DNA from: Arthrobacter sp. zg-Y1110
GTDB taxonomy: Bacteria; Actinomycetota; Actinomycetes; Actinomycetales; Micrococcaceae
NCBI RefSeq assembly: GCF_025244865.1
Contig: NZ_CP104272.1
Location: forward strand, 248,001-312,000
Direction of reading: 5' to 3'
Length of the DNA: 64,000 bases
The notes under the pieces are model-generated. The model was not told the DNA's origin. It made no database searches and saw only the letters and a program-made list of their open reading frames with translations. Positions 853-64,000 of the stretch are shown here, piece after piece; position 1 is the stretch's first letter, and each line of letters starts with the position of its first letter. The position numbers were made by a program, and so were the translations under genes.

Positions 853-972
853 CTCCCCAGAGTAGTCATGTGCTCGAGGGTCCGGCGCGCAGGTGAACGG
901 TGCGGGGCGTGCTCCCTAGAGGCCAGCTCAGTAAGGAACAATGGGCGCAGTTCGAATCTGGAGGGAGAAGCT

Positions 973-1458: not shown

Positions 1459-1525
1459 TAAACCGCGTGCATTGTTGAGACACGAGCGCCTCTGAGGCGG
1501 TTCGTTGAATCGGGGGTAGAGCGAC

Positions 1526-2137: not shown

Positions 2138-2309
2138 ACGTGCCACCTGAGGTTCCTCCAACGCCCACGTATTGACTCTGAGGTGGGCCCGGTAAGGGGG
2201 AATGCGCTTTGATCCGCAGCGGTGCCAGTACGGATGCCGGCAGCCAAAAGCAATCTAGCGATCCTCGAGCTAAATGATCCTTCAACGAACAGTGGACGTC
2301 ATGCTCGCT

Positions 2310-2723: not shown

Positions 2724-2776
2724 GGGCCGAGACTAACCATCATTAAGGTTCCCTAGCCAGCCTTCGCCACACCACA

Positions 2777-3739: not shown

Positions 3740-3746
3740 CCGACAA

Positions 3747-3772
3747 GTCTTATGGCAATGTACCCGTAAGAC
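3747..3772. promoter_or_regulatory. Candidate LysR-type operator between the DMT exporter and LysR genes
   Basis: An inverted repeat with 9-bp arms GTCTTATGG and CCGTAAGAC separated by 8 bp; only one arm position fails to pair. It lies in the 72-bp divergent spacer, which is where LysR-family regulators normally bind to control themselves and the neighbour. The length and AT-rich outer arms fit the T-N11-A type of site. Confidence 0.45.
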
Positions 3773-3811
3773 GAGAGGGCATTTGGTGAACTAATGGTTT
3801 AGATTTCCCTT

Positions 3812-4771: not shown

Positions 4772-4858
4772 TGCTCGACTACCTGCCCCAACGATTTTGG
4801 TGCACTGGATTTCGCCAAAGTAGTTGCGCAGGGACGGCAAACGGAATCCAATAGCCCA

Positions 4859-6202
4859 ATGACGAAAGATCCCGGCACGACCGCATCAAAAGCACCAACC
4901 GGGCTGAAGCGGGCAATTGGTACGCCGCTGCTGTTCGCGTTTATCGTGGGCGACACCCTCGGTGCCGGCATCTACACCCTCGTGGGTACCATGGCGGCCG
5001 ATGTCGGTGGCGCGATCTGGATACCCTTGCTGATCGCACTGGTCGTCGCGCTACTCACTGCCGCGACCTACGCGGAGTTGATCACCAAGTACCCGCACGC
5101 TGGAGGAGCCGCGCGCTACGCCGACCGGGCTTTTGGCATCCCCTACGTGTCATTCCTCGTCGGCTTCCTGATGATGGCCTCGGGAATCACCACAGCCGCT
5201 GCCCTCGCGAACGCCTTCGCGGGCGATTACCTCACCGCGCTCATCGACGTGCCAGCTGCACCCGCGGCGATCGTATTTATTATCTTGCTGACGTTGATCA
5301 ACCTTCGCGGCGTTAAGGAGTCCCTCGGCGCGAACCTCGTAGCTTCCGTCATCGAGGTAACCGGCCTCGTCATCGTCATCATCGTCGCCGCCATCGTCCT
5401 CGCCTCCGGCAACGGGGACCCCTCCCGGCTCCTAGAGTTCGCACCGGACGTACCGCCGTTCCAGGGCGCCTTCGCCGCATCGATCGTCGCGTTTTTCTCT
5501 TTCCTGGGCTTCGAGGCCGCAGCAAACATGGCCGAGGAAGTACGTAACCCATCCAGGGCATACCCCCGCGCATTGTTCGGTGCGATCTGCACCGCCGGGG
5601 TCGTCTACCTCCTCATCGCTCTCGGTGCGGTCATTGTTATGCCCCCGGCCGAACTGGCCGAGTCCACCGGACCCCTGCTCGACGTCGTCGCCGCCAGCGG
5701 CGTCGGAATCCCGCCCGGACTATTCAGCATCATCGCCCTGATCGCCATTGCCAACGGAGCACTGCTGTTCATGGTCATGGCCAGCCGGGTCGGCTACGGA
5801 TTGGCAGAAGCGGAACTGCTCCCTCGCGCCTTCGCTCGCGTGCTGCCAGGCCGTCGCACTCCCTGGGTCTCCATTGTTGTGGTTGCCGGATTGACGATCG
5901 TCCTGACCCTCCTCGGAAATGTCGCCACCTTGGCCGAAACCACCGTGCTGCTCCTACTCCTGGTGTTCCTTTCCGCCAACGTCAGCGTCCTCGTCCTCAA
6001 AAAGGACAAAGTCGACCACGACCACTTCTCAGCCCCCAGAATCCTGCCGGTCCTCGCGATCATTGCGAGCATCGCACTCCTCTCACAACAAACCGGGATC
6101 ATCTGGCTCGGAGCCGCCGCCTACATCGTGGTCGGATCCTTGTTGTTCCTCGCTGCCCGGGCCGGACGCAAACGCGAGGAACGCGTGAGCGCCAGTAGCT
6201 AA
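4859..6202 (+). CDS. APC superfamily amino acid permease
   Basis: A 447-residue integral membrane protein with about twelve hydrophobic segments. The first helix carries the broken-helix motif GDTLGAGIYTLVG (residues 30-42), the substrate-binding glycine-rich motif of the amino acid-polyamine-organocation family, and the middle contains FFSFLGFEAAANMAEEVRNP, another family landmark. It imports or exchanges an amino acid or amine; the substrate is not clear. It follows the LysR gene on the same strand and ends in a 4-bp convergent overlap with the DUF3500 lipoprotein gene. Confidence 0.9.
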   Translation: MTKDPGTTASKAPTGLKRAIGTPLLFAFIVGDTLGAGIYTLVGTMAADVGGAIWIPLLIALVVALLTAATYAELITKYPHAGGAARYADRAFGIPYVSFLVGFLMMASGITTAAALANAFAGDYLTALIDVPAAPAAIVFIILLTLINLRGVKESLGANLVASVIEVTGLVIVIIVAAIVLASGNGDPSRLLEFAPDVPPFQGAFAASIVAFFSFLGFEAAANMAEEVRNPSRAYPRALFGAICTAGVVYLLIALGAVIVMPPAELAESTGPLLDVVAASGVGIPPGLFSIIALIAIANGALLFMVMASRVGYGLAEAELLPRAFARVLPGRRTPWVSIVVVAGLTIVLTLLGNVATLAETTVLLLLLVFLSANVSVLVLKKDKVDHDHFSAPRILPVLAIIASIALLSQQTGIIWLGAAAYIVVGSLLFLAARAGRKREERVSASS

Positions 6203-7485
6203 CGAGGTGGGCCGCCGTCGGGCGGGGTCCCGCCGCCGGGTGGTCCGCCGGCAGGTCCGGTCCCACCGCCCATACCGGAAGCAGCTTGCTGCGTCACGCT
6301 GTTGGCATAGTCGTTCGTGGGGTCGCGGTAAATAGTGTGGACGTGTCCCCAGCCGGAGGTGGACACTCCTTCGACATCTGCGCCTGCCGACCCCTGCTGC
6401 GCCTGGAAGGCGACATAAACGTTCGGCCCAGAGATCGAGAATGAGATACCGTCCCCAGTGCTCATGTCGTACGTGGTCTCCCCGGTCCACGCGATGACGG
6501 TGTCATCGATGGTGGCCTCGATCTTCGCCCGGGAGTCGGCTGTGGTCTGCTCGTCAGCCATGCCGGACCAGTTCGCGATGAGGTCGAGGAGCAACTGCCT
6601 CTGCGCGTCGGTCAGATCGGCGCCGGTGAGGCCGGCTCCGGCGTCGAAATCACAGGTATCGCCAGGGGCACACATGCTGACGTCGCCCGATGTGAGCGCT
6701 GCCTGCTGTTCCCCCGTCAAGCTGTCAAAGAATGCGAACGCATCGGTGTAGATGCCGTCGAACGGCCGCACTTCGTTGCCGTCGTCGTCGGTGTAAACGG
6801 CAGGCTGCACACCGAGGTGGGTGGGAGCGAACGTGATCGCGTCCGTCGCGCCGTCGAGGGTCGCGTTGATACCGAGGTGGTGGCCGCCGAACTGCACTTC
6901 GAAGGCGCCGGTGTCAGACGGCTCGCCGAAGAAGGCGATGTAGTACTGGCCGAGGGACTGCTCGGTGCTGCTGCTGTTCTGCTGCAGATACTCGTCGCCG
7001 CCCATAATGCCGGACACGGTGTCGTACGCTTCGTCGCTGAGGAGCGCCTGCAGGACCGCCAGTGCTGCGGTCTTCTGCTCGTCGGTCAGGTCGGCGAGGT
7101 TCAGGCCGGCACGCTCGACGAACGTCACGGGAAAGTTTGACCAGGACGTTGTCTTCGTCGCGTCGTCGTAGTCATACAGGACTGTCTCGCGCTGCTCGTC
7201 GCTGAGCGTCGCCAGGAATGCGTCAGCGGCAGCTGCGGTCGAGGAAATCGTCTCCTCGGTTGTCGTCGAGGACGTCCCGCCTGTTTTCGGATCCGCGGCC
7301 GTGCTGCTGCTGCTCGAATCACTCCCAGCAGAGGGGGACGCCGTGCCGGAGGTGGAAGCGACGTCGGCCGCGCAGCCGGTCAGGGCGAGGCCGCCTGCCA
7401 GGAGGAGCGAGACGGCCCGCAGGGCGCGCCGTCGTACCAACGACGACGCCGTGGGCAGGGTATCGGTGGTTCTGAATGACTTCAT
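6199..7485 (-). CDS. DUF3500 domain secreted lipoprotein
   Basis: A 428-residue protein with a lipoprotein signal: positively charged start, hydrophobic core and lipobox LALTGC near residue 38, followed by a Ser/Thr/Ala-rich linker to about residue 85. The rest matches DUF3500 as I know it: SDEQRETVLYDYDD, a second and third EQ-type repeat (DLTDEQKTAALAVL, SLTGEQQAALTSG), YYIAFFGEPS and QFGGHHLGINATL, with a histidine-rich centre. The C-terminus is a Gly/Pro tract. DUF3500 proteins are exported and of unknown function. The gene converges on the APC permease and is divergent from the desaturase gene. Confidence 0.87.
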   Translation of the reverse strand: MKSFRTTDTLPTASSLVRRRALRAVSLLLAGGLALTGCAADVASTSGTASPSAGSDSSSSSTAADPKTGGTSSTTTEETISSTAAAADAFLATLSDEQRETVLYDYDDATKTTSWSNFPVTFVERAGLNLADLTDEQKTAALAVLQALLSDEAYDTVSGIMGGDEYLQQNSSSTEQSLGQYYIAFFGEPSDTGAFEVQFGGHHLGINATLDGATDAITFAPTHLGVQPAVYTDDDGNEVRPFDGIYTDAFAFFDSLTGEQQAALTSGDVSMCAPGDTCDFDAGAGLTGADLTDAQRQLLLDLIANWSGMADEQTTADSRAKIEATIDDTVIAWTGETTYDMSTGDGISFSISGPNVYVAFQAQQGSAGADVEGVSTSGWGHVHTIYRDPTNDYANSVTQQAASGMGGGTGPAGGPPGGGTPPDGGPPR

Positions 7486-7622
7486 GTGAACACAGTAGAA
7501 AAAGCCGCTTGCCGTTCGCTTCCTAGTTGCTGAGAGCCTCCTGAAACCGTGTGTCGAATATCCGGAAACGGGCCGGATTATGCGTCAACACGGCTCAGCG
7601 TTCCGCCCCCTAATGAAAGGGA

Positions 7623-7634
7623 GAAGACGTCTTC
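7623..7634. promoter_or_regulatory. Perfect 12-bp palindrome upstream of the desaturase gene
   Basis: GAAGACGTCTTC is a perfect dyad in the 292-bp divergent spacer between the DUF3500 lipoprotein and the fatty-acid desaturase, 144 bp before the desaturase start. It could be an operator for either gene, but there is no other support. Confidence 0.25.
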
Positions 7635-7777
7635 CATATACGATAAGCACACTTAGCTTTGACGGCGGCCAGCCGGAAATGCATACAGCAGCGGACCTCC
7701 ACCCCGGCCAAACGGGGCGGATCCGGTGCTGTTGGTTAACATGACATGGACTACGTCCGCCGATATGAAAGTGAATT

Positions 7778-8893
7778 ATGGAAGACGCCGTTATGACGGG
7801 GACCAGTGTGGATTCGAGTGAAGAAGGCAAACGCCGGCCAGCTGGCCCGGCCCGCCAACGGCACCTCAGCGACTTCACGGCTTTGACCCGGCAAATCCAG
7901 GAAGCCGGTTATATGCGCCGGAACTACGGCTACTACTGGGCCAAGCTGATCGGGGTAACCCTGATTGGGCTGGTGCTGGCCGTGGCTTTCATCCTGCTGG
8001 GGGACACCTGGTGGCAGATGGCGACCGCGGTGGTGCTGGCGCTACTGATGACGCAGATCGCGTTCCTGGGGCACGACGCCGCACACCGGCAGATCTTCGT
8101 GTCGCCGAAGTGGAATGAGTGGGTCTCGCTGATCGTGGTTAACCTCTTTGCCGGCATGGGCCTTGGCTGGTGGAATGCAAAACACAGCAAGCATCATGCC
8201 GCACCAAACAAGGTCGGCACGGATCCGGACATCGCTCCCGGCGTCCTGGCCTTTACCCCCGAGGCCGCCGAAGCGCGCAAGAACCGCTTCACGCGCTGGC
8301 TCGCCACCAAACAGGGTTACTTTTTCTTCCCACTGCTCCTGCTCGAGGGCGTCAACCTGCATGTGCAGGGCATCAAGCGGGTACTGGGAAAGGGTCGGGT
8401 CAAGCGTCGGTGGGTGGAACTTAGCTTCATCACAGTGCGTCTGGCCAGTTACGTGGTGCTGGTCTTCGCCGTGCTTTCTCCGGGCAAGGGCGCAGCGTTC
8501 ATCGGCGTCCAGCTCGCCGTCTTCGGGCTGTATATGGGTATTTCCTTTGCCCCGAACCACATCGGCATGCCGATCGCGCCCCGGGAAGCAGGCATCGATT
8601 TCCTGCGCCGCCAGGTCTTGATGAGCCGCAACATCACCGGCGGCCGGTGGGTGGACACCTTCATGGGAGGACTGAACTTCCAGGTGGAACACCACCTGTT
8701 TCCCTCCATGTCCCGCCCGAATCTGCGAAAAGTCGCCCCGCTGGTCCGCCAGTACTGCGATCAGCTGGGGGTGCGGTACACCGAAACCGGGTTTGGCCAG
8801 TCCTTGAAGGACGTCACCGCCTATATCAACAGGGTGGGCCGCGGCGGGGTCGATACGTGGGCATGCCCGCTGGCCAGCACGCACCGCGTGTAA
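7778..8893 (+). CDS. Membrane fatty acid desaturase (acyl-lipid/acyl-CoA type)
   Basis: A 371-residue membrane di-iron desaturase. The three histidine boxes are intact: HDAAH at residues 99-103, HSKHH at 136-140 and QVEHH at 302-306, which bind the two irons; hydrophobic pairs lie near residues 55-95 and 215-260. The QxxHH form of the third box is typical of front-end/delta-5, -6 type desaturases, though the product is not predictable. It should insert a double bond into membrane fatty acids, for example on cold shift. The start is the ATG at 7778; an in-frame ATG at 7793 is an alternative. It is monocistronic between untranslated spacers. Confidence 0.92.
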   Translation: MEDAVMTGTSVDSSEEGKRRPAGPARQRHLSDFTALTRQIQEAGYMRRNYGYYWAKLIGVTLIGLVLAVAFILLGDTWWQMATAVVLALLMTQIAFLGHDAAHRQIFVSPKWNEWVSLIVVNLFAGMGLGWWNAKHSKHHAAPNKVGTDPDIAPGVLAFTPEAAEARKNRFTRWLATKQGYFFFPLLLLEGVNLHVQGIKRVLGKGRVKRRWVELSFITVRLASYVVLVFAVLSPGKGAAFIGVQLAVFGLYMGISFAPNHIGMPIAPREAGIDFLRRQVLMSRNITGGRWVDTFMGGLNFQVEHHLFPSMSRPNLRKVAPLVRQYCDQLGVRYTETGFGQSLKDVTAYINRVGRGGVDTWACPLASTHRV

Positions 8894-8941
8894 CGGCGGT
8901 TCAAGGGTCCTCCAACTTCACCTCCACAGCTACGACGACCG

Positions 8942-9022
8942 GTGGCCGGGAAGAACGACTACGCCGACGCCAAAACCGACGTCATCCTGGCGATCAAGGC
9001 ACGGGCAGCTCGCGGACGCTAA
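8942..9022 (+). pseudogene. Possible C-terminal remnant of a broken gene
   Basis: In the 157-bp spacer after the desaturase, an open stretch ends with NDYADAKTDVILAIKARA and a stop at 9020-9022. The acid-then-K pattern reads like a true protein C-terminus and resembles the end of GrpB (UPF0157) proteins, but nothing recognisable precedes it in the same frame. I regard it as a gene remnant with low certainty; it could also be chance. Confidence 0.25.
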
Positions 9023-9050
9023 TCAGATAAGCAGGTGGCCACGCTCGGGT

Positions 9051-9638
9051 TCAGCGGGCCGAGACGGAGTTCGTACCCTCGGTTTCGATCAAGGGGTCCC
9101 CGGAGGTGTAGGTAATGGTGTTGTTCTCTCCTTCGACGTCGATGTCACGGGTCTCCTCGACACTGACAGTGTTCGCGGTTCCGTCCACATCGATGTCGGG
9201 CGCATTGCTGAGGGTAGCTTCATTATTGCTGCCCTCAATGTCGAGGCTTTCTGCGTCCTCGCCGCTGACTGTGTTGTCATTGCCCCGGATGTCGATGTCT
9301 TCACATTGACCGGTGGTCCGCACCGTGGAGCCATTTGTCTCGACGTCGATGTCCCCGCCGCCGGAGCAGGTAATGCTGACGCTGGTGTTCGCTTCCGTGA
9401 TTTTATGTTCTTGCCCCCGGCTGAGGGTGATCGTTGCACCGGAGGAGCCTGATGCCGTTGATGCGCTTGAGTCTGTCCCGGAGGCCGTGGCCGTGCTCTC
9501 CGGTGTTCCGACGCTGGTTGATGATGGGGTTCCGGTTTCCTCGGGTGTCGGCGCCGGGTCGGCAGAGCATCCGGCGATGAGTGCCAGGCCCGCGACGGCG
9601 GTGATCACGGGGGCGGTGATGCGGGAGCTTCGGTACAT
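9051..9638 (-). CDS. DUF3060 domain lipoprotein
   Basis: A 195-residue exported lipoprotein: signal peptide with lipobox LIAGC ending near residue 25, then a Ser/Thr/Pro-rich linker to about residue 68. The remainder is a run of short beta-type repeats of the form D-I-D-V/I-x-G-x-x-N-T-V (IDIRGNDNTVSG, DIDVDGTANTVSV, DIDVEGENNTITY), the hallmark of DUF3060, suggesting a right-handed beta-helix or roll on the cell surface. Function unknown. The ATG at 9636-9638 has a good ribosome site (AGGAG) 7 bp upstream. The adjacent upstream sequence is a frameshifted gene remnant, which must therefore contain the promoter. Confidence 0.85.
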   Translation of the reverse strand: MYRSSRITAPVITAVAGLALIAGCSADPAPTPEETGTPSSTSVGTPESTATASGTDSSASTASGSSGATITLSRGQEHKITEANTSVSITCSGGGDIDVETNGSTVRTTGQCEDIDIRGNDNTVSGEDAESLDIEGSNNEATLSNAPDIDVDGTANTVSVEETRDIDVEGENNTITYTSGDPLIETEGTNSVSAR

Positions 9639-9653
9639 GCGGGTTCTCCTCAG

Positions 9654-9842
9654 CTAGACGGGGCTGGGTGTTGGGTCGGCCTGCCCGGAGAGAACATGCA
9701 GCTGCCCGAGCAATCCCTCATTTGGGGCTCTTCCGCTTGCCTGTTTTATTGTCCGGCATCTTGGACGGGATGGCCACGTAACTCCGCAGAATGCTGGGCC
9801 GATACTCCGTCGCCGTCGGCCGGTATCCCCCGTCGCCGAGAC
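9654..9842 (-). pseudogene. Frameshifted, truncated duplicate of the 12182-12982 gene
   Basis: This stretch is clearly homologous to the central and C-terminal part of the membrane protein at 12182-12982. Nucleotides 9677-9804 align with about 12299-12424, including the near-identical block GGCCACGTAACTCCGCAGAA. On the minus strand it reads YRPSILRSYVAIPSKM against YLPSVLRSYVAIPPRM. An extra T in the run at 9744-9747 shifts the frame; removing it restores QASGRAPNEGLLGQLHVLSG against QASGRTPNEELVEQLQLLAG, ending at a stop at 9654. The N-terminal two thirds are missing; the remnant begins right after the SDR stop codon. Confidence 0.85.
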
Positions 9843-10673
9843 CTAGGAGGCAGCCGGCCGCCGGGTGAGACGCTCGGTGAGGAGCCGGTTGGCCCAGTTC
9901 GGCGTCACCTGGGAGAGTGCGGCCAGGAAGCGTGCCTGCGATCCGACGGCATGGTGGACGTTGCGGGGCCACTTCCGATTGCGGCGGGACCTGATGCTGC
10001 GTTCCACGGCGGCGACAGCGGCTGCGGCAACATCGGTTTCGTTCAGCCGCACGCCGAACGACTGGATTGCTCCGATACTGACGCCCTTGACCATCGCGGT
10101 GTTGACGAACAGCGGCCACAGATCCAGCACGGCAATGCCATGCTCCGCCCATTCCAGCTCCAATGCCTCGGTCAGCCCGCGGACCGCGAACTTCGTGGCG
10201 CCGTAGGTGGCAAGATCGGGCTGCCCGTAAATGGCTGAGGCGGATCCGAGGTTGAGCAGCACCGGCCTGTCCGCGTTCTTCAGGTACGGGAACGCGGTAT
10301 GCGCACCATTGATCGTCCCAAGAACGTTGACGTCCACGAGCGCCCGGTGCCGTTCAAGATCGGTATCAACGAACGGGCCGGCGGCCAGCAGCCCGGCGTT
10401 GTTGACCAGAAGGTCCAAGTGGTCCTCGCAAACGGAGGCCAGGGCTTCGCGCCACTGCTGGGCGTCCCGGACATCGAGTGTTCCCGTGACGACCGTGGTG
10501 CCGTACTCGGCAGCGATGTCCTTGAGTTCGGCCAAGCCGTGACTTTCGATGTCGAAGGCACCGACTATCCATCCGTTGCGCAGCAGCCGGGCCGCGGTGG
10601 CGTGCCCGATGCCGCGGGCGGCGCCGGTGACGACGGCGACGCGGCGTGAGTGCTGCTCAGTGTTCCCGGCCAT
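9843..10673 (-). CDS. Short-chain dehydrogenase/reductase (SDR)
   Basis: A 276-residue classical SDR. The NAD(P)-binding motif VTGAARGIG is at residues 15-23, NNAG near 88-91, and the catalytic S-Y-K set is present as NLGSASAIYG...YGATKFAVRG (YxxxK). It should oxidise or reduce an alcohol/ketone. The ATG at 10671-10673 lies one base after the stop of the flavin monooxygenase gene, so the two are translationally coupled; the preferred start drops five residues from the longest frame. Paired with an FMO, the likely job is conversion of an alcohol to a ketone for Baeyer-Villiger or related oxidation, which is inference. Confidence 0.9.
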   Translation of the reverse strand: MAGNTEQHSRRVAVVTGAARGIGHATAARLLRNGWIVGAFDIESHGLAELKDIAAEYGTTVVTGTLDVRDAQQWREALASVCEDHLDLLVNNAGLLAAGPFVDTDLERHRALVDVNVLGTINGAHTAFPYLKNADRPVLLNLGSASAIYGQPDLATYGATKFAVRGLTEALELEWAEHGIAVLDLWPLFVNTAMVKGVSIGAIQSFGVRLNETDVAAAAVAAVERSIRSRRNRKWPRNVHHAVGSQARFLAALSQVTPNWANRLLTERLTRRPAAS

Positions 10674-10674
10674 G

Positions 10675-12060
10675 TCAGGCCCCCACACGGTGGGCTGCGG
10701 CCTGCGCAGTGGTTATGCGCCGCGCTCCGGCATCGTGCTCCCTGCGCAGGGCACGCATGTAATCGTCGAAATCCACCTGGATGGTGTGCCGCTTGCTGGT
10801 GACGTACCGCTTGGTGATCGCCTTGCGGTGGCGGTCGATCTCGGCGTCCATCGCGGCCCGCCCGGGCAGGGCGTAGCGGCCCTGGAGATGGTCGGCGGCG
10901 AGCTCGGACTGCCGCTCGGCGATCGGCATGACCGCGCCGAGCGGTTGGACCAGTCCGATGAAGTACAGCCCCGGCACCGTGGGGTGGAACATCCGTTGGT
11001 AGAGCCGGATCTCGTTATCTCCGGAGGGGTTGAGGAACTCAGCGTCAAAGAAAGGGAATGAGATTCTGTACCCGGTGCAGTAGATCACGAGGTCTGCCGC
11101 GACGCGGGTGTCGTCGGTGAAGACGACGCTGTCGCCGTCGAAGCGCTGGATGTTGGGCTTCGGGACCACATCGCCGTGGGCAAGCCTGTCGAGTATCCGG
11201 CCGGAGACGGTCGGGTGGGCCTGGGCGAACTTGTGGTCGGGTTCCTGGAGGCCGTAACGCGACATCGGGCCGGTGGCGGCGCGCATGATCACGCGGGCGA
11301 CCGCCCAGCGGACGCGGGACGGGATCTTCTCGTGCGCTCCGATCTCGTCGAAGGGCTTGCCGAAGACGTACTTGGGAATGATGTGCACGCCCCGCCGATG
11401 GGAGAGGTAGGTCTCGGCCGCGTGATAGCTGGCATCTGTGCAGATGTCCATGGCCGAGTTGCCCATGCCGAGCACCACGATCCGCTTGCCGGTGAGCTGT
11501 TGCTCGTCCTTGTAGTCGTGGGAGTGCATCTGCTCGCCGGTGAAGCCTTCGGCGCCGGGGAAGGCTGGCTCCGGCATGCGGGGGTCCCAGTGGTGGCCGT
11601 TGGCCACTATGACCGAACCGTAGCGCCGGGTCTCCGCGGTGCTCAACCGAACCTCGAAGCCGCCCCCGGGCAGGGGGCGCACGTGCTCCACACCGGTGTT
11701 GAAGGTGATCTTGTCCCGGAACCCGAAGTGGTCGACGTAGGCGTCGAAGTACGCCGCGACCTGGTCATGGCGTGCGAAATTGGGCAGGTTCGCGGGCATC
11801 GGAAAGTCGCTGAACTCCATCCGGCTGCGCGAGGTGTTGATGTGGAGAGACTTGTAGGCCGCGGACACTCCGTTGCTGTTGCCCCATACCCAGTTGCCGC
11901 CGACCCGGTCTGAGAGTTCAAAGCAGTCGAAGGCAAGTCCCCGTTCGTGGAGGACTTTGGCCGCCGTGATTCCGGAGCAGCCGGCGCCGATGACGCACAC
12001 GCGCTCGCGCTCGCTGCTGCCGAGCTCGTCGGTGGGTGGTGTGCTGTGGGCTGTCATCAT
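10675..12060 (-). CDS. Flavin-containing monooxygenase (FMO/BVMO type)
   Basis: A 461-residue flavoprotein. The FAD motif GAGCSG is at residues 25-30, the FMO signature FTGEQMHSHDY (FxGxxxHxxxY type) follows near residue 170, and the NADPH motif GMGNSA near 198-203; a further VIYCTGY segment is the standard C-terminal FMO ATG-like motif. It should catalyse NADPH-dependent oxygenation of a soft nucleophile or ketone in the cytoplasm. It heads a two-gene operon with the SDR. The spacer upstream of the start contains overlapping inverted repeats that could bind a regulator; no regulator gene is adjacent. Confidence 0.9.
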   Translation of the reverse strand: MMTAHSTPPTDELGSSERERVCVIGAGCSGITAAKVLHERGLAFDCFELSDRVGGNWVWGNSNGVSAAYKSLHINTSRSRMEFSDFPMPANLPNFARHDQVAAYFDAYVDHFGFRDKITFNTGVEHVRPLPGGGFEVRLSTAETRRYGSVIVANGHHWDPRMPEPAFPGAEGFTGEQMHSHDYKDEQQLTGKRIVVLGMGNSAMDICTDASYHAAETYLSHRRGVHIIPKYVFGKPFDEIGAHEKIPSRVRWAVARVIMRAATGPMSRYGLQEPDHKFAQAHPTVSGRILDRLAHGDVVPKPNIQRFDGDSVVFTDDTRVAADLVIYCTGYRISFPFFDAEFLNPSGDNEIRLYQRMFHPTVPGLYFIGLVQPLGAVMPIAERQSELAADHLQGRYALPGRAAMDAEIDRHRKAITKRYVTSKRHTIQVDFDDYMRALRREHDAGARRITTAQAAAHRVGA

Positions 12061-12091
12061 TGGCGCTCCAAGCAGGTGGATGTGTGATCGT

Positions 12092-57289: not shown

Positions 57290-57392
57290 TTTCGTGTCTC
57301 GGGGGTAATCAGCGGCCTAATCGGGGCTTTTGCGGGCGGCGCGCCCGAGCACCGCTGTTTCTTTGGATGCGGATGTTATCTACTCTGTACTA

Positions 57393-57692
57393 GTGATCTT
57401 CAAAGCTGTTGGCGACGTACGCCCCTACCCTGACCATGGATACGTAACACCGAAGGACTGGGCAGCGGTACCTCCCCGGCAGGTTCGCCTGGATGAACTG
57501 GTGACCACGAAGGCCACACTGGACCTCGGCGCGCTGCTGGCCGAGGATTCCACCTTTTTCGGAGACCTGTTCCCGCACGTCGTCCAATGGAAGGGCACCA
57601 TGTACCTCGAAGACGGATTGCACCGGGCCGTAAGGACGGCACTGCACCAGCGGACCATACTGCACGCACGCGTGCTGGTCCTCGATGACTAA
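57393..57692 (+). CDS. Actinobacterial conserved protein annotated as VapB-type antitoxin
   Basis: A 99-residue protein beginning MIFKAVGDVRPYPDHGY (GTG start) and continuing TTKATLDLGALLAEDSTFFG to HARVLVLDD. I recall near-identical proteins in Arthrobacter genomes labelled as type II VapB antitoxin, but no VapC-like toxin is next to it and the sequence lacks an obvious AbrB or ribbon-helix-helix start. It overlaps the LytR_C gene by 8 bp, and this pairing appears to be conserved, pointing to an envelope-related house-keeping role rather than a toxin system. Confidence 0.7.
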   Translation: MIFKAVGDVRPYPDHGYVTPKDWAAVPPRQVRLDELVTTKATLDLGALLAEDSTFFGDLFPHVVQWKGTMYLEDGLHRAVRTALHQRTILHARVLVLDD

Positions 57693-58362
57693 GGAGCCCC
57701 TTGAGGGGCGGCACCGCGGCAACCCGGCGAGGAACGATCCAAGGGAATGGCACGGGCACCGGATCATTACCGGAGGCGACCTCGGCGCGGTATTTGCACC
57801 GACCGAGGAACCGGAGCTCGTCCGGCGTGCGAGACGGCGCCGGCGGCTGCATAATTCAGTGGTCGGGGTGCTGGCGTTGTTCCTGGTGCTGGCAGTGATC
57901 CTGGCCCAGGGATTGGTTTCGGGGTGGGTACGGCTGCCCGGGGCAGCACCCAGCACCTCTGCGGGTCCGGTGGACGAATGTCCGGCCGGGCCTTTTCCGT
58001 ATCTGGACCCCGCCACCGTGACGGTGAATGTCTACAACGCGACGGCGTCGCCGGGCCTGGGCGGAACCGTCGGAGACGCCCTGAATGAGCGCGGATTCCG
58101 GGTGGACCGGATAGGCAACAGCAGCGTGAACCGTTCCGGCATGACCGCGCTGGTGCTTTCCGGACCCTCCGGGGCCGCGGCCGCCTACACGCTGCAGCAG
58201 CACATTCCCGGCACGGACTACGTCCTGGACGAGCGGACGGACGCATCGGTGGACGTGGTGATCGGCTCCGGATTCCAGGAACTCCTCCCGGCGGAACAGG
58301 CCGTGGCGGCGGGCCCGGGTGCCCTGAGTTGTCCGGGCAGTTCGACGCCGGACGGACAGTAA
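57685..58362 (+). CDS. LytR C-terminal domain protein, membrane-anchored
   Basis: A 225-residue protein with a basic cytoplasmic start (RRARRRRRLHN near residues 47-57), one membrane helix (VVGVLALFLVLAVILAQGLV, about 59-78) and an external LytR_C domain recognised by VNVYNATASPGLGG and the following GFRVDRIG turn. The domain appears at the end of LytR-CpsA-Psr cell-wall ligases, but here it stands alone without the ligase part. It overlaps the upstream gene by 8 bp. It presumably binds a cell-wall component or partner outside the membrane. Confidence 0.87.
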   Translation: MTKEPLEGRHRGNPARNDPREWHGHRIITGGDLGAVFAPTEEPELVRRARRRRRLHNSVVGVLALFLVLAVILAQGLVSGWVRLPGAAPSTSAGPVDECPAGPFPYLDPATVTVNVYNATASPGLGGTVGDALNERGFRVDRIGNSSVNRSGMTALVLSGPSGAAAAYTLQQHIPGTDYVLDERTDASVDVVIGSGFQELLPAEQAVAAGPGALSCPGSSTPDGQ

Positions 58363-58367
58363 CCGCG

Positions 58368-59111
58368 GTGGGCCTGCCACACAGTGAAACACGCGCCTTT
58401 CGACACCGGCAGGAACCGGCGGTACTGCGGCTGGCGGTACGGCCGCTGGACTCGGTGGACCTTCGGGCAGCGGACAGCCTGGGCCCCGCCGTACGCGCAC
58501 GGGCACAGGGATTCCATCACGAGGAGGACCGCCGTCGTTTCCTTGCCGGACGGCTGGCCGCCCGGTCCCTGGTGGCCGCGTACCTGCAAGCGCCCGAGGA
58601 CGCGGTGAGCGCAGTGGCGCACTGTCCCGACTGCCTGCACGGCAATGACGGAAGCCACGGGGAGCCGCGCTATTTCATTGCGGGCGAGCCAACCCCGCTC
58701 AGGGTCAGTTTCAGCCGTTCCGGGAACTGGCTCGCGGCGGCGCTCGCGCAGACGCGTGTGGGGGTGGACTTGGAGGACTCAGATGCCCGGGCCTTCGCCG
58801 ATACGGCGGTGGAGGACGTTATGGCCACCGATACGGAAAAGGCGGCCATCGCGGCCGCCGCGGTTTCCAACCGCCCCCGCCTGCGGGCGCAGATCTGGGT
58901 ACGCAAGGAAGCCCTGCTGAAGGCCTCCGGCCAGGGGCTGCGGGTTGATCCCCGCAATGTGGAAACGGATTTCGGCGAACGGGGGCGCGGAAACGGCGCC
59001 GGATTCAGCGGGTTGCGCACGTACGACGTCGGGCCGGAGCAGCTGGGGCTACCCGCCTCCTTTGCGCTGTCCTACGCCGTGGACGCGAGTATTGCGGACG
59101 GGTTGGCTTAG
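58368..59111 (+). CDS. 4'-phosphopantetheinyl transferase (Sfp type)
   Basis: A protein of 247 residues of the Sfp superfamily. Motifs are RFLAGRLAARSLVAAYL near the N-half, GVDLEDSDARAFADTA with the magnesium-binding Asp and Glu, and WVRKEALLKASGQGL (WxxKEAxxK) in the C-half. It transfers phosphopantetheine from CoA to a serine of a carrier domain. A Pls/PosA-type NRPS with a carrier domain follows 1.6 kb to the right, so it is the natural partner. The GTG at 58368 is chosen; a TTG at 58329 is an alternative that would overlap the LytR_C gene. Confidence 0.87.
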   Translation: MGLPHSETRAFRHRQEPAVLRLAVRPLDSVDLRAADSLGPAVRARAQGFHHEEDRRRFLAGRLAARSLVAAYLQAPEDAVSAVAHCPDCLHGNDGSHGEPRYFIAGEPTPLRVSFSRSGNWLAAALAQTRVGVDLEDSDARAFADTAVEDVMATDTEKAAIAAAAVSNRPRLRAQIWVRKEALLKASGQGLRVDPRNVETDFGERGRGNGAGFSGLRTYDVGPEQLGLPASFALSYAVDASIADGLA

Positions 59112-60292
59112 CGGCCCCGCTTGGCGGAACGGGGATCCGGGTGCCGCCGAAGGACGGAGTCCCGCGCGGAAGCGGCGCCCCGGGAGACGAGTTTCTCCAA
59201 CGGCCCCTGTTTCCCCGCACGCTGCCAAATCACCGCGAAGATTACGAATGCGGTGATCTGAAGCCAAAGGGAGATTACCGGGAGGTCGGCCAGTGCCCCG
59301 GTGCCGAGGAAAAGCAGATGGGTGCAGTAGAGGGTAAGCGTCATCCGGCCGGGCGCGGACAGGAGGAGTAACGCCTTACCGGCAAAGCGTGAAACCAGCA
59401 GCATGGCGCCGAGCACGGCCGTGGCAACTCCGATGGTGTGCAGCAGGTCGAATGGTGTGGTGCTGTGCGGCGCGGCGATGGACAGCCACCACCAGGAGCT
59501 GGTGGGAAGGTACTCGTCGGTGCCCCACACCAGGATGCCCTGGAGGTCGTCTGGACTTAGATCCGGTTCCGATGCCAGCAACCGGTCAAACCCCGGACCG
59601 GCGAGCAGTAGCCGGGAGCCGAACCAGGCAGCCGCGGCAAGTGCCGCGCCTGACCCCAGCAGCACCAATTGCACTCTGGGACGGTCCAGGCTCATCCTGC
59701 CGATAGCGAGCCCGGCGGCAATGTAGGCCAGCCATGGAATGGCGGGGTAGGTCCCTGTCAGCAAAAGCTGACTCAGGAAGACGCCGGGTTCGGTGAACAC
59801 AGTGGAGAAGGTGGGGTCGAATCCGGGCGCAGGGAGGTAATCCCGCAGGCCCTGCATCAGGATCGGCCCAAGCAGCGCGAACGCCGCTGCGGCGACGAGC
59901 AGTGTCCGGGTCGATACTCCCAGCAGCGGGACTGCCAGCAGGAACATGGCACCGTAGTAGGCCAGGATGATGAAGGCGTCCATGTCCACATAAGCGATGG
60001 CGAGGCCAAGGGCGGTAACCAGTCCCGCCCTTGCCGCCACACTCCTCCGGGCCGCAGTCAGGAAGTGTCCCCCTTCCGTCCTTGCCCTTCGGGTGGTGAA
60101 GGCCAACGTAACCCCGGCCAGAAGGGCAAAGAGCGCGGCCGCCTTGCCGGCGAACAGCAGCCACGTCAGGGTCGGCTCGACATCTTCACCCGAGGCAGGC
60201 AGGAGATGGATCGCCATCATCCCGAAAAGCGCCAGCCCGCGCGCAGCGTCCACTCCTGACAGCCTGGGTCTCGATGTAGCTAAGGAAGACAT
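59108..60292 (-). CDS. Membrane acyltransferase-like protein (DUF418/HGSNAT-type)
   Basis: A 394-residue protein with about ten membrane helices. The beginning LSGVDAARGLALFGMMAIHL carries the R-G-x-A-x-x-G-x-x-x-x-H pattern of the heparan-alpha-glucosaminide N-acetyltransferase/DUF1624 group, and the end (WQRAGKQGPLEKLV) recalls DUF418 (GPLE). It might move acyl groups to a surface molecule. It converges on the PPTase gene (4-bp overlap) and is divergent from the NRPS gene. I took the ATG at 60292; a longer frame adds non-conserved residues. Confidence 0.8.
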   Translation of the reverse strand: MSSLATSRPRLSGVDAARGLALFGMMAIHLLPASGEDVEPTLTWLLFAGKAAALFALLAGVTLAFTTRRARTEGGHFLTAARRSVAARAGLVTALGLAIAYVDMDAFIILAYYGAMFLLAVPLLGVSTRTLLVAAAAFALLGPILMQGLRDYLPAPGFDPTFSTVFTEPGVFLSQLLLTGTYPAIPWLAYIAAGLAIGRMSLDRPRVQLVLLGSGAALAAAAWFGSRLLLAGPGFDRLLASEPDLSPDDLQGILVWGTDEYLPTSSWWWLSIAAPHSTTPFDLLHTIGVATAVLGAMLLVSRFAGKALLLLSAPGRMTLTLYCTHLLFLGTGALADLPVISLWLQITAFVIFAVIWQRAGKQGPLEKLVSRGAASARDSVLRRHPDPRSAKRGR

Positions 60293-60678
60293 GCTTTGGA
60301 TCCCATCGGCAGGTGTTGTCCAGCGCCCCTGTCGAGTGCCGGGGTGGACCACACAACCAACGGCGTCTGTCCGTAACCTATCGGAAACCTAAGCGCAGGC
60401 TGTGAAGCACCGGAAGCCGTTTTTACCTGTGCCCTGCTTGCCCGTCCTGACGCGGGATGCCCGAGGAACGGAATCCAGGTCGGGTAGTGGTTCGAGTAGC
60501 CGCTGCGGTGGGGGAGTAATTAACCCCGTACTGAATGGACTCCTGCGTGCCCGCGGTACTCATGTGAATCCGCTGGGATTTTCCTAGTCTTCCCTGCATC
60601 GCCCCGGCCATCGCCGGGCTCAGGTTGTGGTCCCTCGACCACGGATATGAGATGCACCAGCAGGGAGAACTGCTTTAT
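60293..60678. other. 386-bp divergent spacer before the NRPS gene
   Basis: Contains the hairpin GTGGTC-CCTC-GACCAC at 60627-60642, just ahead of the NRPS start, and no recognisable gene, RNA or consensus promoter. The NRPS start at 60679 has a weak GGGAG 11 bp upstream; an in-frame ATG at 60652 is an alternative. Confidence 0.45.
60627..60642 (+). promoter_or_regulatory. Hairpin immediately upstream of the NRPS start
   Basis: Six-bp perfect stem GTGGTC/GACCAC with a 4-base loop, 37 bp before the ATG. It could act as a 5' leader element or a dyad operator; nothing else supports a function. Confidence 0.3.
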
Positions 60679-63600
60679 ATGAACACGCCCGAAAACCCAC
60701 AAGACGTGGCGGCAGGACCATTAACCACCCGGCACCCGGCCGCCTCCGGCAGCAAGACCGCACCACCCCTTCCCCAGAGGGAACCATCAGTAGCAAACTC
60801 CGGTCCCGTTCCCGCAGGATCGGCGGTTCTTCACGGCGGCCGCACACCGGAGCAGCGCACACTGGTCGATATCATCACCGAAACGGTCTCCGCCTATCCG
60901 GGCGCACCCGCCATTGATGACGGATCCGTCTCCTTGAGCTACGCCGAACTTCAGCTCCGGGTGCAGGACCTCGCAAGGCGGCTGTGGGCCGGCGGCATCG
61001 GTGCAGGAGACCGGGTGGGAATCTATGTCCCCTCCGGGTCCGTGGATCTGTACATAGCTATTCTCGGTGTGCTGTACTCCGGTGCCGCCTATGTCCCCGT
61101 GGACACGGACGAACCGGCCGGCCGTGCCGAAACGGTGTGGGCCGAAGGCGGAGTCTGCGCGGTTATTGAAGCAGGGTTGGAGCTGAACCTGCTCCAGGGC
61201 GTCCCCAGCGGCGGACACAGCCCCCAGCCGCACCCCGAAGATGATGCGTGGATCATCTTCACCTCCGGTTCCACGGGCAAGCCCAAGGGGGTGGCCGTCA
61301 CCCACCGCTCAGCGGCTGCCCTGGTGGATGCCGAATCCTCGCTCTACTGCGTCAGTGCCCCGCTTTCGCCGGGGGACCGGGTCCTGGCCGGGCTGTCTGT
61401 CAGCTTTGACGCCTCATGTGAGGAGATGTGGCTGGCGTGGGCCCACGGTGCGTGCCTGGTTCCGGCGCCTCGTTCCGTGGTGCGGTCCGGAGCGGACCTC
61501 GGCCCCTGGCTCGTCGAACGGAGAATCACTGCCGTTTCAACAGTGCCCACCCTTGCCGCGCACTGGTCCACCGAGACCCTTGACCGCGTGCGGCTGCTGA
61601 TTTTCGGCGGTGAAGCCTGCCCGGAGGACCTGGTCCGGCGTCTGGCTGCCCCCGGGCGCGAGGTCTGGAACACCTACGGCCCCACTGAAACCACGGTTAT
61701 TGCCTGCGGCGCACTTTTGGACGGACAGTCCACCGTCCGGATCGGCCTGCCGCTGAACGGGTGGAGCCTCGCCGTCATCGGCGAAGACGGGACCCCCGTG
61801 CGCTGGGGGGAAGTGGGCGAACTGGTCATCGGCGGTGTAGGGGTTTCGCGGTACCTCGACCCGAAAAAGGACGCCGAGAAATTCACCCCGCTTCCCGCCC
61901 TCGGATGGGAACGGGCCTACTACAGCGGAGACCACGTCCGCGCAGACCAGGAAGGCCTCGTCTTTGTGGGGCGGGTGGATGAGCAGATCAAGCTGGGCGG
62001 CCGGCGGGTTGAGCTCGGCGAGATTGACGATGCCCTAAGCCGGCTGCCGGGCGTGGCCGTAGCTTCAGCCGCCGTCCATTCCACCCAGTCCGGAAACCAG
62101 GTGCTGGCCGGATATCTGGTCCCGGCGGCCGGCGCCACCCTGGACCTTGGCGCCGCACGGGCCCAGCTGGCCCAGAACCTGCCGGCATCCATCGTCCCGT
62201 CGCTGGGGATCGTCGATGAGCTGCCGATGAAGGCCTCGGGGAAAGTTGACCGCAAGGCCCTGCCCTGGCCCCTGCCTGTTATGGAAACCCCAACCGACGT
62301 CCGGGTGGAGCTCAACGCCGATCTGCGTTGGCTGGGCCAGCGGTGGACCGATCTGCTGGGACCGCTGCCGCTGACCGAGGAAAGCGATTTCTTTGCCCTG
62401 GGCGGAGCCAGCCTGGCTGCCGCCCAATTGGTCTCTGCGCTGCGGGAACGTTACCCCAAGGTCTCGGTCGCCGATATCTACGAGCATCCGACGCTGATCA
62501 CGATGTCCGAGCACTTGGCGTCACTGCGCGATTCAACCCTGGACGTCCGCGAAACCCCCGAATCGCCCTGGTGGCTGGGGCTGGTCCAGGCGCCGCTGAT
62601 CGTGGCGCTCTACGGGATCACGGGCCTGCGGTACGTCACCGGCATCGCCGTCGTGTGCATGGTGATGTTCCATGTAGTGGGCAGCCCCTGGACTCCGGAT
62701 CCACCGGTGGTTCCCACCCTTGCGGCCTGGCTGGCCTTGTACAGCCTGCCGGCACGGATGATCGCCGCGGTGGTCTCGTCCAGGTTGCTGCTCCTGGGAA
62801 TCGGTCCCGGCATTTATCGGCGCGGCGGCAGCACCCACCTGAGGCTGTGGGCTGCTGAGCGGATAGTGACGTACTGCAAGCTCGAGCCCATCATGGGATC
62901 CCCGCTGGGCACCTGGTATGCGCGGCAGTTGGGCTGCAACATCGGTGAAGGCGTGCACCTTGACGCCATGCCGCCCGTTACCGGTTTTGCGTCGATAGGT
63001 GACGGGTCCTCCATCGAATACGAAGTAGACCTGGCAGGCCACTGGGTTGAAGGCGGGCAGCTCCACATCGGCAGGATCCAGATCGGTGAAGACGTACGGA
63101 TCGGTGCACGGTCCACGCTGATGGGCGGGGCGAAGGTAGGCCGCGGAGCGGAAACGGAACCGGGCACCCTGGTCTCCGGCGAAATCCCCGCCTTTGAGCT
63201 TTGGGCGGGATCCCAGATGCGGAAGACCGGTAGTGCCGGGGCGGGATGGCCAGAGGAAGCAGCGCCTGCCGCTGAATCCCGAAGAGTACGGTTGCTCTAC
63301 CCGGCATCCCTGGGCGGCATCGCCTTGTTGAATCTCCTTTCCATAGCGCCCGGATCCGCCCTGATGCTGTGGTTGCTGAACGGTGTTTCCTCTTTCACCG
63401 ACGCGTTGTGGATCCTGGCCGTCTGGGCACCTGTCTTCGTGGTGATTTCCATGCTGATGTTCCTCGTGCTCACCGCCGCCGTGGTCCGCGGTACAGCTCA
63501 CCTGATGCCGCCGGGCATGCACCCGGCGGACGGTATAACGGGCTGGGCGTCCTGGTTGAGCAACCTGATGCTGAGCCGGTCGCTGATTACGATGTATCCG

Positions 63601-64000
63601 ATCTACGCCAGCGTGCTCACGCCGGTGTGGATGCGGATCCTGGGTGCGAAGGTCGGCCGGCACGTGGAAATCTCCACTATGGAAACCGTGCCGCACCTGA
63701 CGCGGCTGGAGGACCGGACCTTCCTGGCGGACCATTCCATGATGTCGGCGCGGCGGGTGCGCCAGGGATGGCTGCACCTCGGTCCCGCGAGTGTCGCGGA
63801 ACAGTCCTTCGTCGGGAACTCGGCGATCGTGGGGCCGGACACACACGTTCCGGGGAACTCCCTGATCGCGGTACTTTCTTCGGCTCCCAGGAATATGCCG
63901 GCGGGCACTTCCTGGTTCGGGCGTCCGGCGGTGGAGCTTCCGAGGCCGGTGCAGGTGGGGGACACCGCACGGACCTACGATCCTCCCCGACGCCTGCTGG
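60679..64000 (+). CDS. Pls/PosA-family nonribosomal peptide synthetase, C-terminus beyond the window
   Basis: At least 1107 residues, truncated at the window end. Order: an adenylation domain (about residues 50-540) with IFTSGSTGKPKG, NTYGPTETT, YYSGDHV, GRVDEQIKLGGRR and ASGKVDRKAL; a carrier domain with LGGASL, phosphopantetheine serine S578; membrane helices from about 640; and left-handed beta-helix hexapeptide segments (HIGRIQIGEDVRIGARSTL and later ILGAKVGRHVEI). This A-T-membrane layout without a condensation domain is that of epsilon-poly-lysine synthetase-like enzymes. The binding-pocket residues by alignment with GrsA PheA are D-A-E-S-I-G-T-V-I-K. An upstream PPTase could prime it. 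Confidence 0.9.
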   Translation, partial: MNTPENPQDVAAGPLTTRHPAASGSKTAPPLPQREPSVANSGPVPAGSAVLHGGRTPEQRTLVDIITETVSAYPGAPAIDDGSVSLSYAELQLRVQDLARRLWAGGIGAGDRVGIYVPSGSVDLYIAILGVLYSGAAYVPVDTDEPAGRAETVWAEGGVCAVIEAGLELNLLQGVPSGGHSPQPHPEDDAWIIFTSGSTGKPKGVAVTHRSAAALVDAESSLYCVSAPLSPGDRVLAGLSVSFDASCEEMWLAWAHGACLVPAPRSVVRSGADLGPWLVERRITAVSTVPTLAAHWSTETLDRVRLLIFGGEACPEDLVRRLAAPGREVWNTYGPTETTVIACGALLDGQSTVRIGLPLNGWSLAVIGEDGTPVRWGEVGELVIGGVGVSRYLDPKKDAEKFTPLPALGWERAYYSGDHVRADQEGLVFVGRVDEQIKLGGRRVELGEIDDALSRLPGVAVASAAVHSTQSGNQVLAGYLVPAAGATLDLGAARAQLAQNLPASIVPSLGIVDELPMKASGKVDRKALPWPLPVMETPTDVRVELNADLRWLGQRWTDLLGPLPLTEESDFFALGGASLAAAQLVSALRERYPKVSVADIYEHPTLITMSEHLASLRDSTLDVRETPESPWWLGLVQAPLIVALYGITGLRYVTGIAVVCMVMFHVVGSPWTPDPPVVPTLAAWLALYSLPARMIAAVVSSRLLLLGIGPGIYRRGGSTHLRLWAAERIVTYCKLEPIMGSPLGTWYARQLGCNIGEGVHLDAMPPVTGFASIGDGSSIEYEVDLAGHWVEGGQLHIGRIQIGEDVRIGARSTLMGGAKVGRGAETEPGTLVSGEIPAFELWAGSQMRKTGSAGAGWPEEAAPAAESRRVRLLYPASLGGIALLNLLSIAPGSALMLWLLNGVSSFTDALWILAVWAPVFVVISMLMFLVLTAAVVRGTAHLMPPGMHPADGITGWASWLSNLMLSRSLITMYPIYASVLTPVWMRILGAKVGRHVEISTMETVPHLTRLEDRTFLADHSMMSARRVRQGWLHLGPASVAEQSFVGNSAIVGPDTHVPGNSLIAVLSSAPRNMPAGTSWFGRPAVELPRPVQVGDTARTYDPPRRLL

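What the first reader, a model, noticed from the sequence alone, without database searches (positions are those of the whole stretch)
60679..64000. Probable poly-amino-acid synthetase of the Pls/PosA family with a lysine-like specificity code
The visible part is A domain, carrier domain and then membrane helices with hexapeptide beta-helix segments, the layout of epsilon-poly-L-lysine synthetase rather than of ordinary NRPSs. Reading the ten pocket positions by eye against GrsA gives DAESIGTVIK. From memory the bacitracin lysine code is DAESIGSVCK, agreeing at eight of ten positions, so the substrate is likely lysine or another cationic amino acid. This suggests a cationic homopolymer or isopeptide product in a Micrococcaceae-like soil bacterium.
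Basis: partly seen in the sequence, partly recalled or inferred. Interest (0 to 1): 0.85.

Follow-up and report, generated by a model that had tools for sequence, protein, structure and literature searches.

The report
Polylysine synthetase with extra lysine operon
The gene at the end of this window is almost certainly an enzyme that strings lysine into the natural antimicrobial polymer epsilon-polylysine; the enzyme type is known, but here it sits in an unusual gene set that comes with its own lysine-making gene and membrane and cell-wall enzymes.

Summary
The gene starts at 60679 and runs 734 bases past the window (contig 308679-312734, 1351 aa). The full protein passes TIGR02353 (575 bits, cut-off 423). 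It has an adenylation domain, a carrier domain, six membrane helices in three pairs and no condensation or thioesterase match. The pocket code is DAESIGTVIK. The nearest solved relative is an epsilon-poly-L-lysine synthase (7wew, E 9.4e-183), whose code differs only by V for I at position 9. Lysine is well supported. Pls homologues in Arthrobacter are in print (PMC8117764), so the enzyme is a new member of a known family.

What I add is the gene set. Seven genes (PPTase, two HGSNAT-like membrane acyltransferases, pls, a second dapA overlapping pls by 4 bp, a YkuD-like protein, an M1 peptidase) are together present in 12 and together absent from 17 of 29 genus genomes. Eight of 16 pls-less loci show an empty site. 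Pls proteins with an HGSNAT-like gene nearby form one clade. Most likely this is a self-supplied epsilon-polylysine module. Roles of the acyltransferases and the YkuD-like protein are inferred; production is untested.

The parts
60679..64000 (+). pls-like gene (first 3322 of 4056 bases; the rest lies outside the window, contig C1:312001-312734)
   Evidence: TIGR02353 575 bits on the full protein
60880..62277 (+). adenylation domain (residues 68-533) with pocket code DAESIGTVIK
   Evidence: Pfam AMP-binding; 7wew_A alignment over residues 33-533; code by alignment
62329..62517 (+). carrier (thiolation) domain, residues 551-613, attachment serine 578 (codon 62410-62412)
   Evidence: Pfam PP-binding; serine in 99 of 99 aligned proteins, own included
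62572..64000 (+). start of the C-terminal polymerising part: membrane segment pairs and hexapeptide repeats (C1-C3 region; continues outside the window)
   Evidence: TIGR02353 residues 668-1322; Hexapep; hydropathy
60353..60678 (.). 326-bp spacer between the divergent HGSNAT-like gene and pls (promoter region presumed, not tested); no Rfam match in it
   Evidence: Rfam scan of L011 1500-14700 without hits
59108..60352 (-). HGSNAT/DUF418-like membrane acyltransferase 'a', divergent from pls
   Evidence: PF07786 E 5.6e-14; paralogue of the copy behind dapA2; within the genus this and the other extra copy occur only with pls
58329..59111 (+). 4'-phosphopantetheinyl transferase, called Sfp-type here from its size (true start uncertain, overlaps the previous gene)
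   Evidence: PF01648 E 3.7e-12; in the genus found in the 12 pls-bearing genomes only

Best explanation
[quoted passage not shown] The PPTase next door arms its carrier domain; the adenylation domain loads L-lysine; the membrane-embedded C1-C3 part joins the epsilon-amine of one lysine to the carboxyl of the next and the chain is exported (mechanism taken from the Streptomyces enzyme). The gene heads an operon in which a second dihydrodipicolinate synthase (dapA2), overlapping pls by 4 bp, raises lysine supply; an M1 peptidase, taken to be the PldII counterpart, trims or removes polymer. Two HGSNAT-like membrane acyltransferases and a membrane-anchored YkuD-like protein most likely protect the producer's envelope or modify the exported polymer; those last roles are inference.
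For: Full-length TIGR02353 match above cut-off. Best solved relative is an epsilon-PL synthase adenylation domain, 613 bits; the pocket differs at one of ten positions. 97 of 99 aligned proteins, own included, read DAESIGT[VI][VI]K. An M1 peptidase match lies in 52 of 80 named pls loci, within 600 bp of pls in 48, and in 20 of the 21 pls-bearing genomes among 59. All seven genes are together in 12 of 29 genus genomes and absent from the other 17. LytR_C and DsbA genes are side by side in 8 of 16 pls-less loci. The flanking-gene tree needs 6 changes of the pls label, 3 forced by starred branches. DapA2 passes TIGR00674 and keeps the five catalytic residues. Raising dapA expression increased epsilon-PL by 19.8% in S. 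diastatochromogenes (PMC8506220, passage). C. variabile Pls makes epsilon-PL in S. coelicolor (PMC8117764).
Against: No product has been measured here, and the passages I read report none from an Arthrobacter. C. variabile itself made none in culture (PMC8117764). Joint loss of neighbouring genes can be a single deletion and does not by itself prove a shared role. Outside the genus the set thins out: of 80 named loci 6 have this dapA near pls, 5 the YkuD-like gene and only 1 (Arthrobacter) the PPTase. The housekeeping dapA already carries Lys at position 56, as dapA2 does, so dapA2 is not the only copy predicted feedback-insensitive. HGSNAT-like genes also stand beside the housekeeping dapA, so they may relate to lysine metabolism rather than to the polymer. 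No paper seen states that PldII is an M1 peptidase; that equation rests on position.
Confidence: 0.9

Rival explanations
1. A Pls-family enzyme whose real monomer is not lysine but another diamino acid (ornithine, diaminobutyrate, or diaminopimelate supplied by DapA2).
For: Pocket codes can mislead: PosA's nearest code was lysine but its substrate is ornithine. DapA feeds diaminopimelate as well as lysine. A divergent relative in the order has DFEYNGTVTK with similar neighbours.
Against: Position 2 is Ala as in lysine enzymes, not Met (Orn) or Phe (Dap) (PMC10522769). 9 of 10 pocket residues equal the solved Pls.
Confidence: 0.05
2. The polymer is made but is modified or tethered: HGSNAT-like enzymes acylate its free alpha-amines outside the membrane and the YkuD-like protein links it to peptidoglycan, so it is a wall component rather than a secreted antibiotic.
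For: An HGSNAT-like gene lies near pls (directly beside it or one gene away) in 29 of 30 members of one Pls clade, the 30th on a contig ending shortly after pls, and also in the divergent G045 locus. The YkuD-like protein keeps the His/Cys motif, has hydrophobic segments at both ends of its outer domain, and its best Foldseek hits are LD-carboxypeptidases and LD-transpeptidases.
Against: No direct evidence. The best fold matches include hydrolases (Csd6, Bd1075, DpaA), with low TM-scores (about 0.2-0.3 by query) and only one E under 0.001. HGSNAT-like proteins also sit beside the housekeeping dapA. The fold match to HGSNAT is modest (TM 0.46, best E 1.4e-3). The YkuD-like gene is near pls in only 5 of 80 named loci.
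Confidence: 0.15
3. A silent or purely self-directed locus: pls is intact but not expressed in free-living cells, or polymer is degraded at once by the M1 peptidase.
For: C. variabile made no epsilon-PL in culture though its gene works in S. coelicolor (PMC8117764). The locus has a PldII-like peptidase.
Against: No stop inside pls in 12 of 12 pls-bearing genus members, and repeated gain or loss with the whole set, speak for a used function.
Confidence: 0.2

Closest known systems
epsilon-poly-L-lysine synthetase Pls of Streptomyces (TIGR02353; PDB 7wew is an epsilon-PL synthase adenylation domain) with pldII
   Same: A-T-six helices-C1/C2/C3 layout, near-identical pocket, a peptidase gene in the neighbourhood, a 4-bp overlap of pls with the next gene (PMC4361855, passage; translational coupling PMC9223678, passage)
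   Different: The 4-bp overlap is with a second dapA, not pldII; the peptidase is three genes further on; PPTase, two HGSNAT-like genes and a YkuD-like gene are added; Ile for Val at pocket position 9
Coryneform Pls (Corynebacterium variabile and homologues in Arthrobacter, Brevibacterium and others; PMC8117764)
   Same: Same enzyme class; Arthrobacter is named there
   Different: C. variabile is described with a pls-peptidase operon; the dapA-HGSNAT-YkuD set is not mentioned in the parts I read (1 and 2 of 4)
PosA delta-poly-L-ornithine synthetase (Acinetobacter baumannii; PMC10522769)
   Same: Same family and layout
   Different: Met at position 2 and ornithine specificity; described as a single-gene operon
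Heparan-alpha-glucosaminide N-acetyltransferase (HGSNAT) fold proteins
   Same: Pfam PF07786 and AlphaFold/Foldseek match
   Different: Bacterial, linked to pls; acceptor unknown

Membership tests
Pls/PosA family (TIGR02353) | Score above NCBIfam cut-off over the whole terminal domain | tested here: met
   575.2 vs 423.1 bits, profile 33-694 of 695
Pls/PosA family (TIGR02353) | Single A-T unit, no condensation or thioesterase domain | tested here: met
   Pfam lists only AMP-binding, its C-terminal part, PP-binding and Hexapep in the full protein
Pls/PosA family (TIGR02353) | Six membrane helices in three pairs around C1-C3 | tested here: met
   hydropathy, window 19, cut 1.6, neighbouring runs merged by eye
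epsilon-poly-L-lysine synthetase | Lysine pocket with Ala at position 2 and Glu at position 3 | tested here: met
   DAESIGTVIK against 7wew, read from the printed alignment
epsilon-poly-L-lysine synthetase | Activates L-lysine and makes an epsilon-linked homopolymer | not testable with these tools
   needs enzyme assay and mass spectrometry
pls-pldII gene pair | PldII-type peptidase directly behind pls | tested here: not met
   dapA2 is directly behind; the M1 peptidase follows three genes later
4-hydroxy-tetrahydrodipicolinate synthase (DapA) | TIGR00674 cut-off and Thr44/Tyr107/Tyr133/Arg138/Lys161 | tested here: met
   251 vs 206.15 bits; residues by motif (residue list from PMC5109050, passage)
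L,D-transpeptidase (YkuD) | Catalytic His and Cys of the motif | tested here: met
   invariant H197 and C206 (P0001 numbering) in 30 of 30 chosen homologues; in the own protein HAGYAPTWGC at 200
L,D-transpeptidase (YkuD) | YkuD fold | tested here: inconclusive
   Foldseek of a 99% identical homologue: best hit Csd6 E 1.4e-4 and mostly LD-transpeptidases below it, but TM by query only 0.28
L,D-transpeptidase (YkuD) | Pfam PF03734 match of this protein | tested here: not met
   no Pfam hit at E 1e-3; a few homologues carry it (P0070, P0077, P0116)
HGSNAT-type acyltransferase | PF07786 cut-off | tested here: met
   52.6 and 48.6 vs 22 bits
HGSNAT-type acyltransferase | Acyl transfer across the membrane to an amine | not testable with these tools
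   biochemistry needed

The most novel reading that the evidence does not exclude
In this clade Pls does not simply secrete free epsilon-polylysine: the pls-linked HGSNAT-like enzymes acylate the exported chain and the YkuD-like protein attaches it to peptidoglycan, giving an acylated or wall-anchored polylysine, fed by a dedicated dapA translated together with pls.
Probability: 0.15. Interest if true: 0.8.

Novelty: new variant of a known kind. Interest (0 to 1): 0.45.

Why it matters
The enzyme itself is a known food-preservative synthetase type. The module matters for two reasons. It shows lysine supply built into the operon, which engineers have imposed on Streptomyces by raising dapA. And it offers pls-linked acyltransferase and YkuD-like candidates for how a Gram-positive producer survives or displays a membrane-damaging polycation; the natural role of these polymers is poorly understood. 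The module is gained or lost as a unit among close relatives, so paired comparison is possible.

Tried and rejected
Feedback resistance as the reason for dapA2: rejected as a distinguishing feature, because the housekeeping copy also has Lys at position 56. Known RNA elements such as a lysine riboswitch in the locus: none at E 0.5. A run of three 4-bp overlaps through the operon: only pls/dapA2 is firm; the next two junctions have alternative starts. Sequence searches of the PDB for the YkuD-like protein (nothing) and with profiles for the HGSNAT-like and YkuD-like proteins (only chance hits) failed, so folds were used. Plasmid search: 34 plasmid records hold Pls-family genes, all under 60% identical, so nothing points to a recent plasmid origin here. 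Literature searches on pls with adenylation domain, dihydrodipicolinate synthase, Arthrobacter, HGSNAT, Micrococcaceae or NAPAA, and self-resistance showed no description of this gene set in the titles, abstract starts and passages I saw; Figure 6 of PMC12067966, which compares neighbouring genes, is not held, so I cannot exclude it there.
Full report
WHAT IS THERE. The window ends inside one gene. In the genome that holds it (3.9 Mb, 2 contigs; window = C1:248001-312000) the gene runs from 308679 to 312734 and encodes 1351 residues. On the whole protein NCBIfam TIGR02353 (Pls/PosA family) scores 575.2 bits against a cut-off of 423.1; the part inside the window scored 316.9 and would have failed. 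Pfam finds AMP-binding, its C-terminal part, PP-binding and hexapeptide repeats and no condensation or thioesterase domain. Hydropathy shows six membrane segments in three pairs, the layout described for Pls (PMC8117764, parts 1-2 of 4 read).

SUBSTRATE. The nearest solved structure by sequence is the adenylation domain of an epsilon-poly-L-lysine synthase, 7wew (613 bits, E 9.4e-183, residues 33-533). The ten pocket residues are DAESIGTVIK; the 7wew residues, read from the printed alignment, are DAESIGTVVK. Positions were placed by motif and by the spacing given for PosA in PMC10522769 (passages), allowing one residue of shift; GrsA itself was not aligned. Among 99 proteins aligned here (own included) 70 have DAESIGTVVK, 25 DAESIGTVIK, 2 DAESIGTIIK, 1 is truncated and 1, from a distant genome of the order (G045), has DFEYNGTVTK. 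The 99 are those over 1100 residues among 102 found; three shorter pieces (L062, L064, L099) were dropped. PMC10522769 reports Ala at position 2 in lysine enzymes, Met in PosA and Phe in the PDAP enzyme, and warns by example that a lysine-like nearest code is not proof (section 6).

THE GENE SET. Reading along the contig: LytR_C gene, PPTase, HGSNAT/DUF418-like acyltransferase (reverse strand), pls, dapA2, a second HGSNAT-like gene, a YkuD-like protein, an M1 peptidase, then DsbA-like and malate synthase genes. pls and dapA2 overlap by 4 bp (ATGA, with GGAG upstream). The same overlap is possible in 11 of 17 loci with this dapA that I checked (L028 and L038 are identical, so 16 distinct; L039 was not checked); in the other 6 dapA can start 9-28 bp behind pls. 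In S. albulus it is pldII that overlaps pls by 4 bp (PMC4361855, passage) and is translationally coupled to it (PMC9223678, introduction passage). DapA2 is 44% identical to the genome's other DapA, passes TIGR00674 and has the catalytic residues; both copies have Lys at position 56, the class reported as insensitive to lysine (PMC5109050, passage). I call the M1 peptidase PldII-like because it stands where pldII is reported to stand in other loci; no paper I saw gives PldII's peptidase family.

CO-OCCURRENCE. I searched 59 genomes (own, 28 of the genus, 30 wider). pls at E<=1e-150: 21 of 59, in the genus 12 of 29. YkuD-like at E<=1e-10: 13 of 59, the same 12 of 29 in the genus plus G034. A second DapA: the same 12 of 29, one copy in the other 17. 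HGSNAT-like at E<=1e-30: three copies in the same 12, one in the other 17. M1 peptidase at E<=1e-60: 20 of 59, the same 12 in the genus and 8 of the 9 other pls genomes, in G033 on another contig; the ninth, G045, has its own more distant M1 peptidase beside its synthetase. PPTase at E<=1e-10: 18 of 59, the same 12 of 29 in the genus. Against a simple rule: outside the genus PPTase and HGSNAT hits occur without pls too. The other adenylation-domain matches in this genome are weak (33% identity or less over any long stretch, one 49% over 49 residues), so Pls is the only evident client of the PPTase.

EMPTY SITE. Of 17 pls-less genus genomes I first fetched the matching place from 16. In 8 of 16 the LytR_C and DsbA matches stand side by side (about 30-100 bp apart) where the module lies in the window's genome, G002 and G018; in the others different genes lie between, or part of the flank was not found. 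In G023 and Arthrobacter pullicola (L038) the module lies nearer malate synthase instead. The left flank of the other pls-bearing genomes was not looked at. A tree of the flanking malate synthase (30 rows, 13 with pls, of which L038 and the G006 row are identical) needs 6 changes of the pls label, at least 3 forced by well-supported branches. It is one gene's tree and does not tell gain from loss.

WIDER CONTEXT. 80 named loci were returned, the cap, of at least 585 relatives; 10 of them are under 20 kb because contigs end. An M1 peptidase match lies in 52 of 80 (within 600 bp of pls in 48); HGSNAT-like in 17 of 80 (within 600 bp in 12, 1.0-1.2 kb away behind dapA in 5); this type of dapA next to pls in 6 of 80 (two further loci have only distant DapA-family hits); YkuD-like in 5 of 80; the PPTase in 1 of 80, an Arthrobacter (first count). 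In the tree of 99 Pls, those with an HGSNAT-like gene nearby fall in one clade of 30 (SH-aLRT 97, quick tree); 29 have it and the 30th (L052) lies on a contig that ends shortly after pls. The other 68 ingroup rows were not seen with it at E 1e-10 and 50 bits, but seven of them (L030-L036) were held with only about 1.5 kb of flank, and L039's second pls stands some 7 kb from the HGSNAT gene of its neighbour; divergent copies could be missed. The outgroup G045 has HGSNAT, synthetase and M1 peptidase together. Near-identical rows were kept, and long branches make parts of this tree unsure.

ACCESSORY PROTEINS. AlphaFold of an 88% identical HGSNAT-like homologue (pLDDT 87.5): the top 13 Foldseek rows have probability 1.00; 11 are titled human HGSNAT and two only 'membrane proteins'; TM about 0.46, best E 1.4e-3, none under 0.001. 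A 99% identical YkuD-like homologue (pLDDT 77.8, low-confidence tail): best hit Csd6 (E 1.4e-4, TM by query 0.28), then several L,D-transpeptidases, Bd1075, YkuD and DpaA at E above 0.001; it keeps His and Cys of the motif in 30 of 30 chosen rows, and the own protein has hydrophobic segments at residues 9-32 and 268-291. Databases already call some relatives YkuD-like, and relatives exist in genera where I did not look for pls.

HOW IT WORKS. Shown by sequence: an intact lysine-type Pls in a recurrent seven-gene set. From the literature: Pls polymerises lysine and PldII degrades it; the C. variabile enzyme makes epsilon-PL in S. coelicolor but none was found at home (PMC8117764); extra dapA raised epsilon-PL by 19.8% (PMC8506220, passage). 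Inferred: dapA2 supplies lysine, the PPTase serves Pls, the peptidase trims, the HGSNAT-like and YkuD-like proteins protect or modify.

NOVELTY. Pls homologues in Arthrobacter were reported in 2021 (PMC8117764), and NAPAA clusters were found in all nine Antarctic isolates of one study, drawn from Micrococcaceae and Dermatophilaceae (PMC11078813, passages). The dapA-HGSNAT-YkuD arrangement did not appear in the listings or passages I saw. I therefore call the enzyme a new member and the module a new variant.

Noticed in passing
L039:2757-6566 (-) and 8132-12076 (+): Paeniglutamicibacter antarcticus carries two different pls genes side by side, divergent: one of the pls-M1 peptidase clade, one of the pls-dapA-HGSNAT clade.
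   Followed up: partly
L185 (G045:C63) 929-8080: A distant Pls-family gene with code DFEYNGTVTK (not the lysine code) also has an HGSNAT-like gene and an M1 peptidase as neighbours.
   Followed up: partly
L146:1817-3976 (own genome C1:1236778-1238985) and L147-L156, L159: The housekeeping-type dapA has an HGSNAT/DUF418-like gene within about 1.3 kb in these 12 loci; in L157, L158, L160 and L161 it is kilobases away and in L162 none is seen. Loci were picked because the coordinates looked close. The reason for the pairing is unknown.
   Followed up: partly
window 57330-57692: A VapB-like gene (PF23719) beside the LytR_C gene is conserved at 86-97% identity in all 17 pls-less genus genomes searched.
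   Followed up: no
plasmid records: 34 plasmid records hold Pls-family genes, including Mycobacterium and Acinetobacter plasmids.
   Followed up: no
L107:7283-12154: In Streptomyces rimosus the pls-like frame is 1623 residues and matches in two separated pieces, suggesting an insert between carrier and terminal parts.
   Followed up: no
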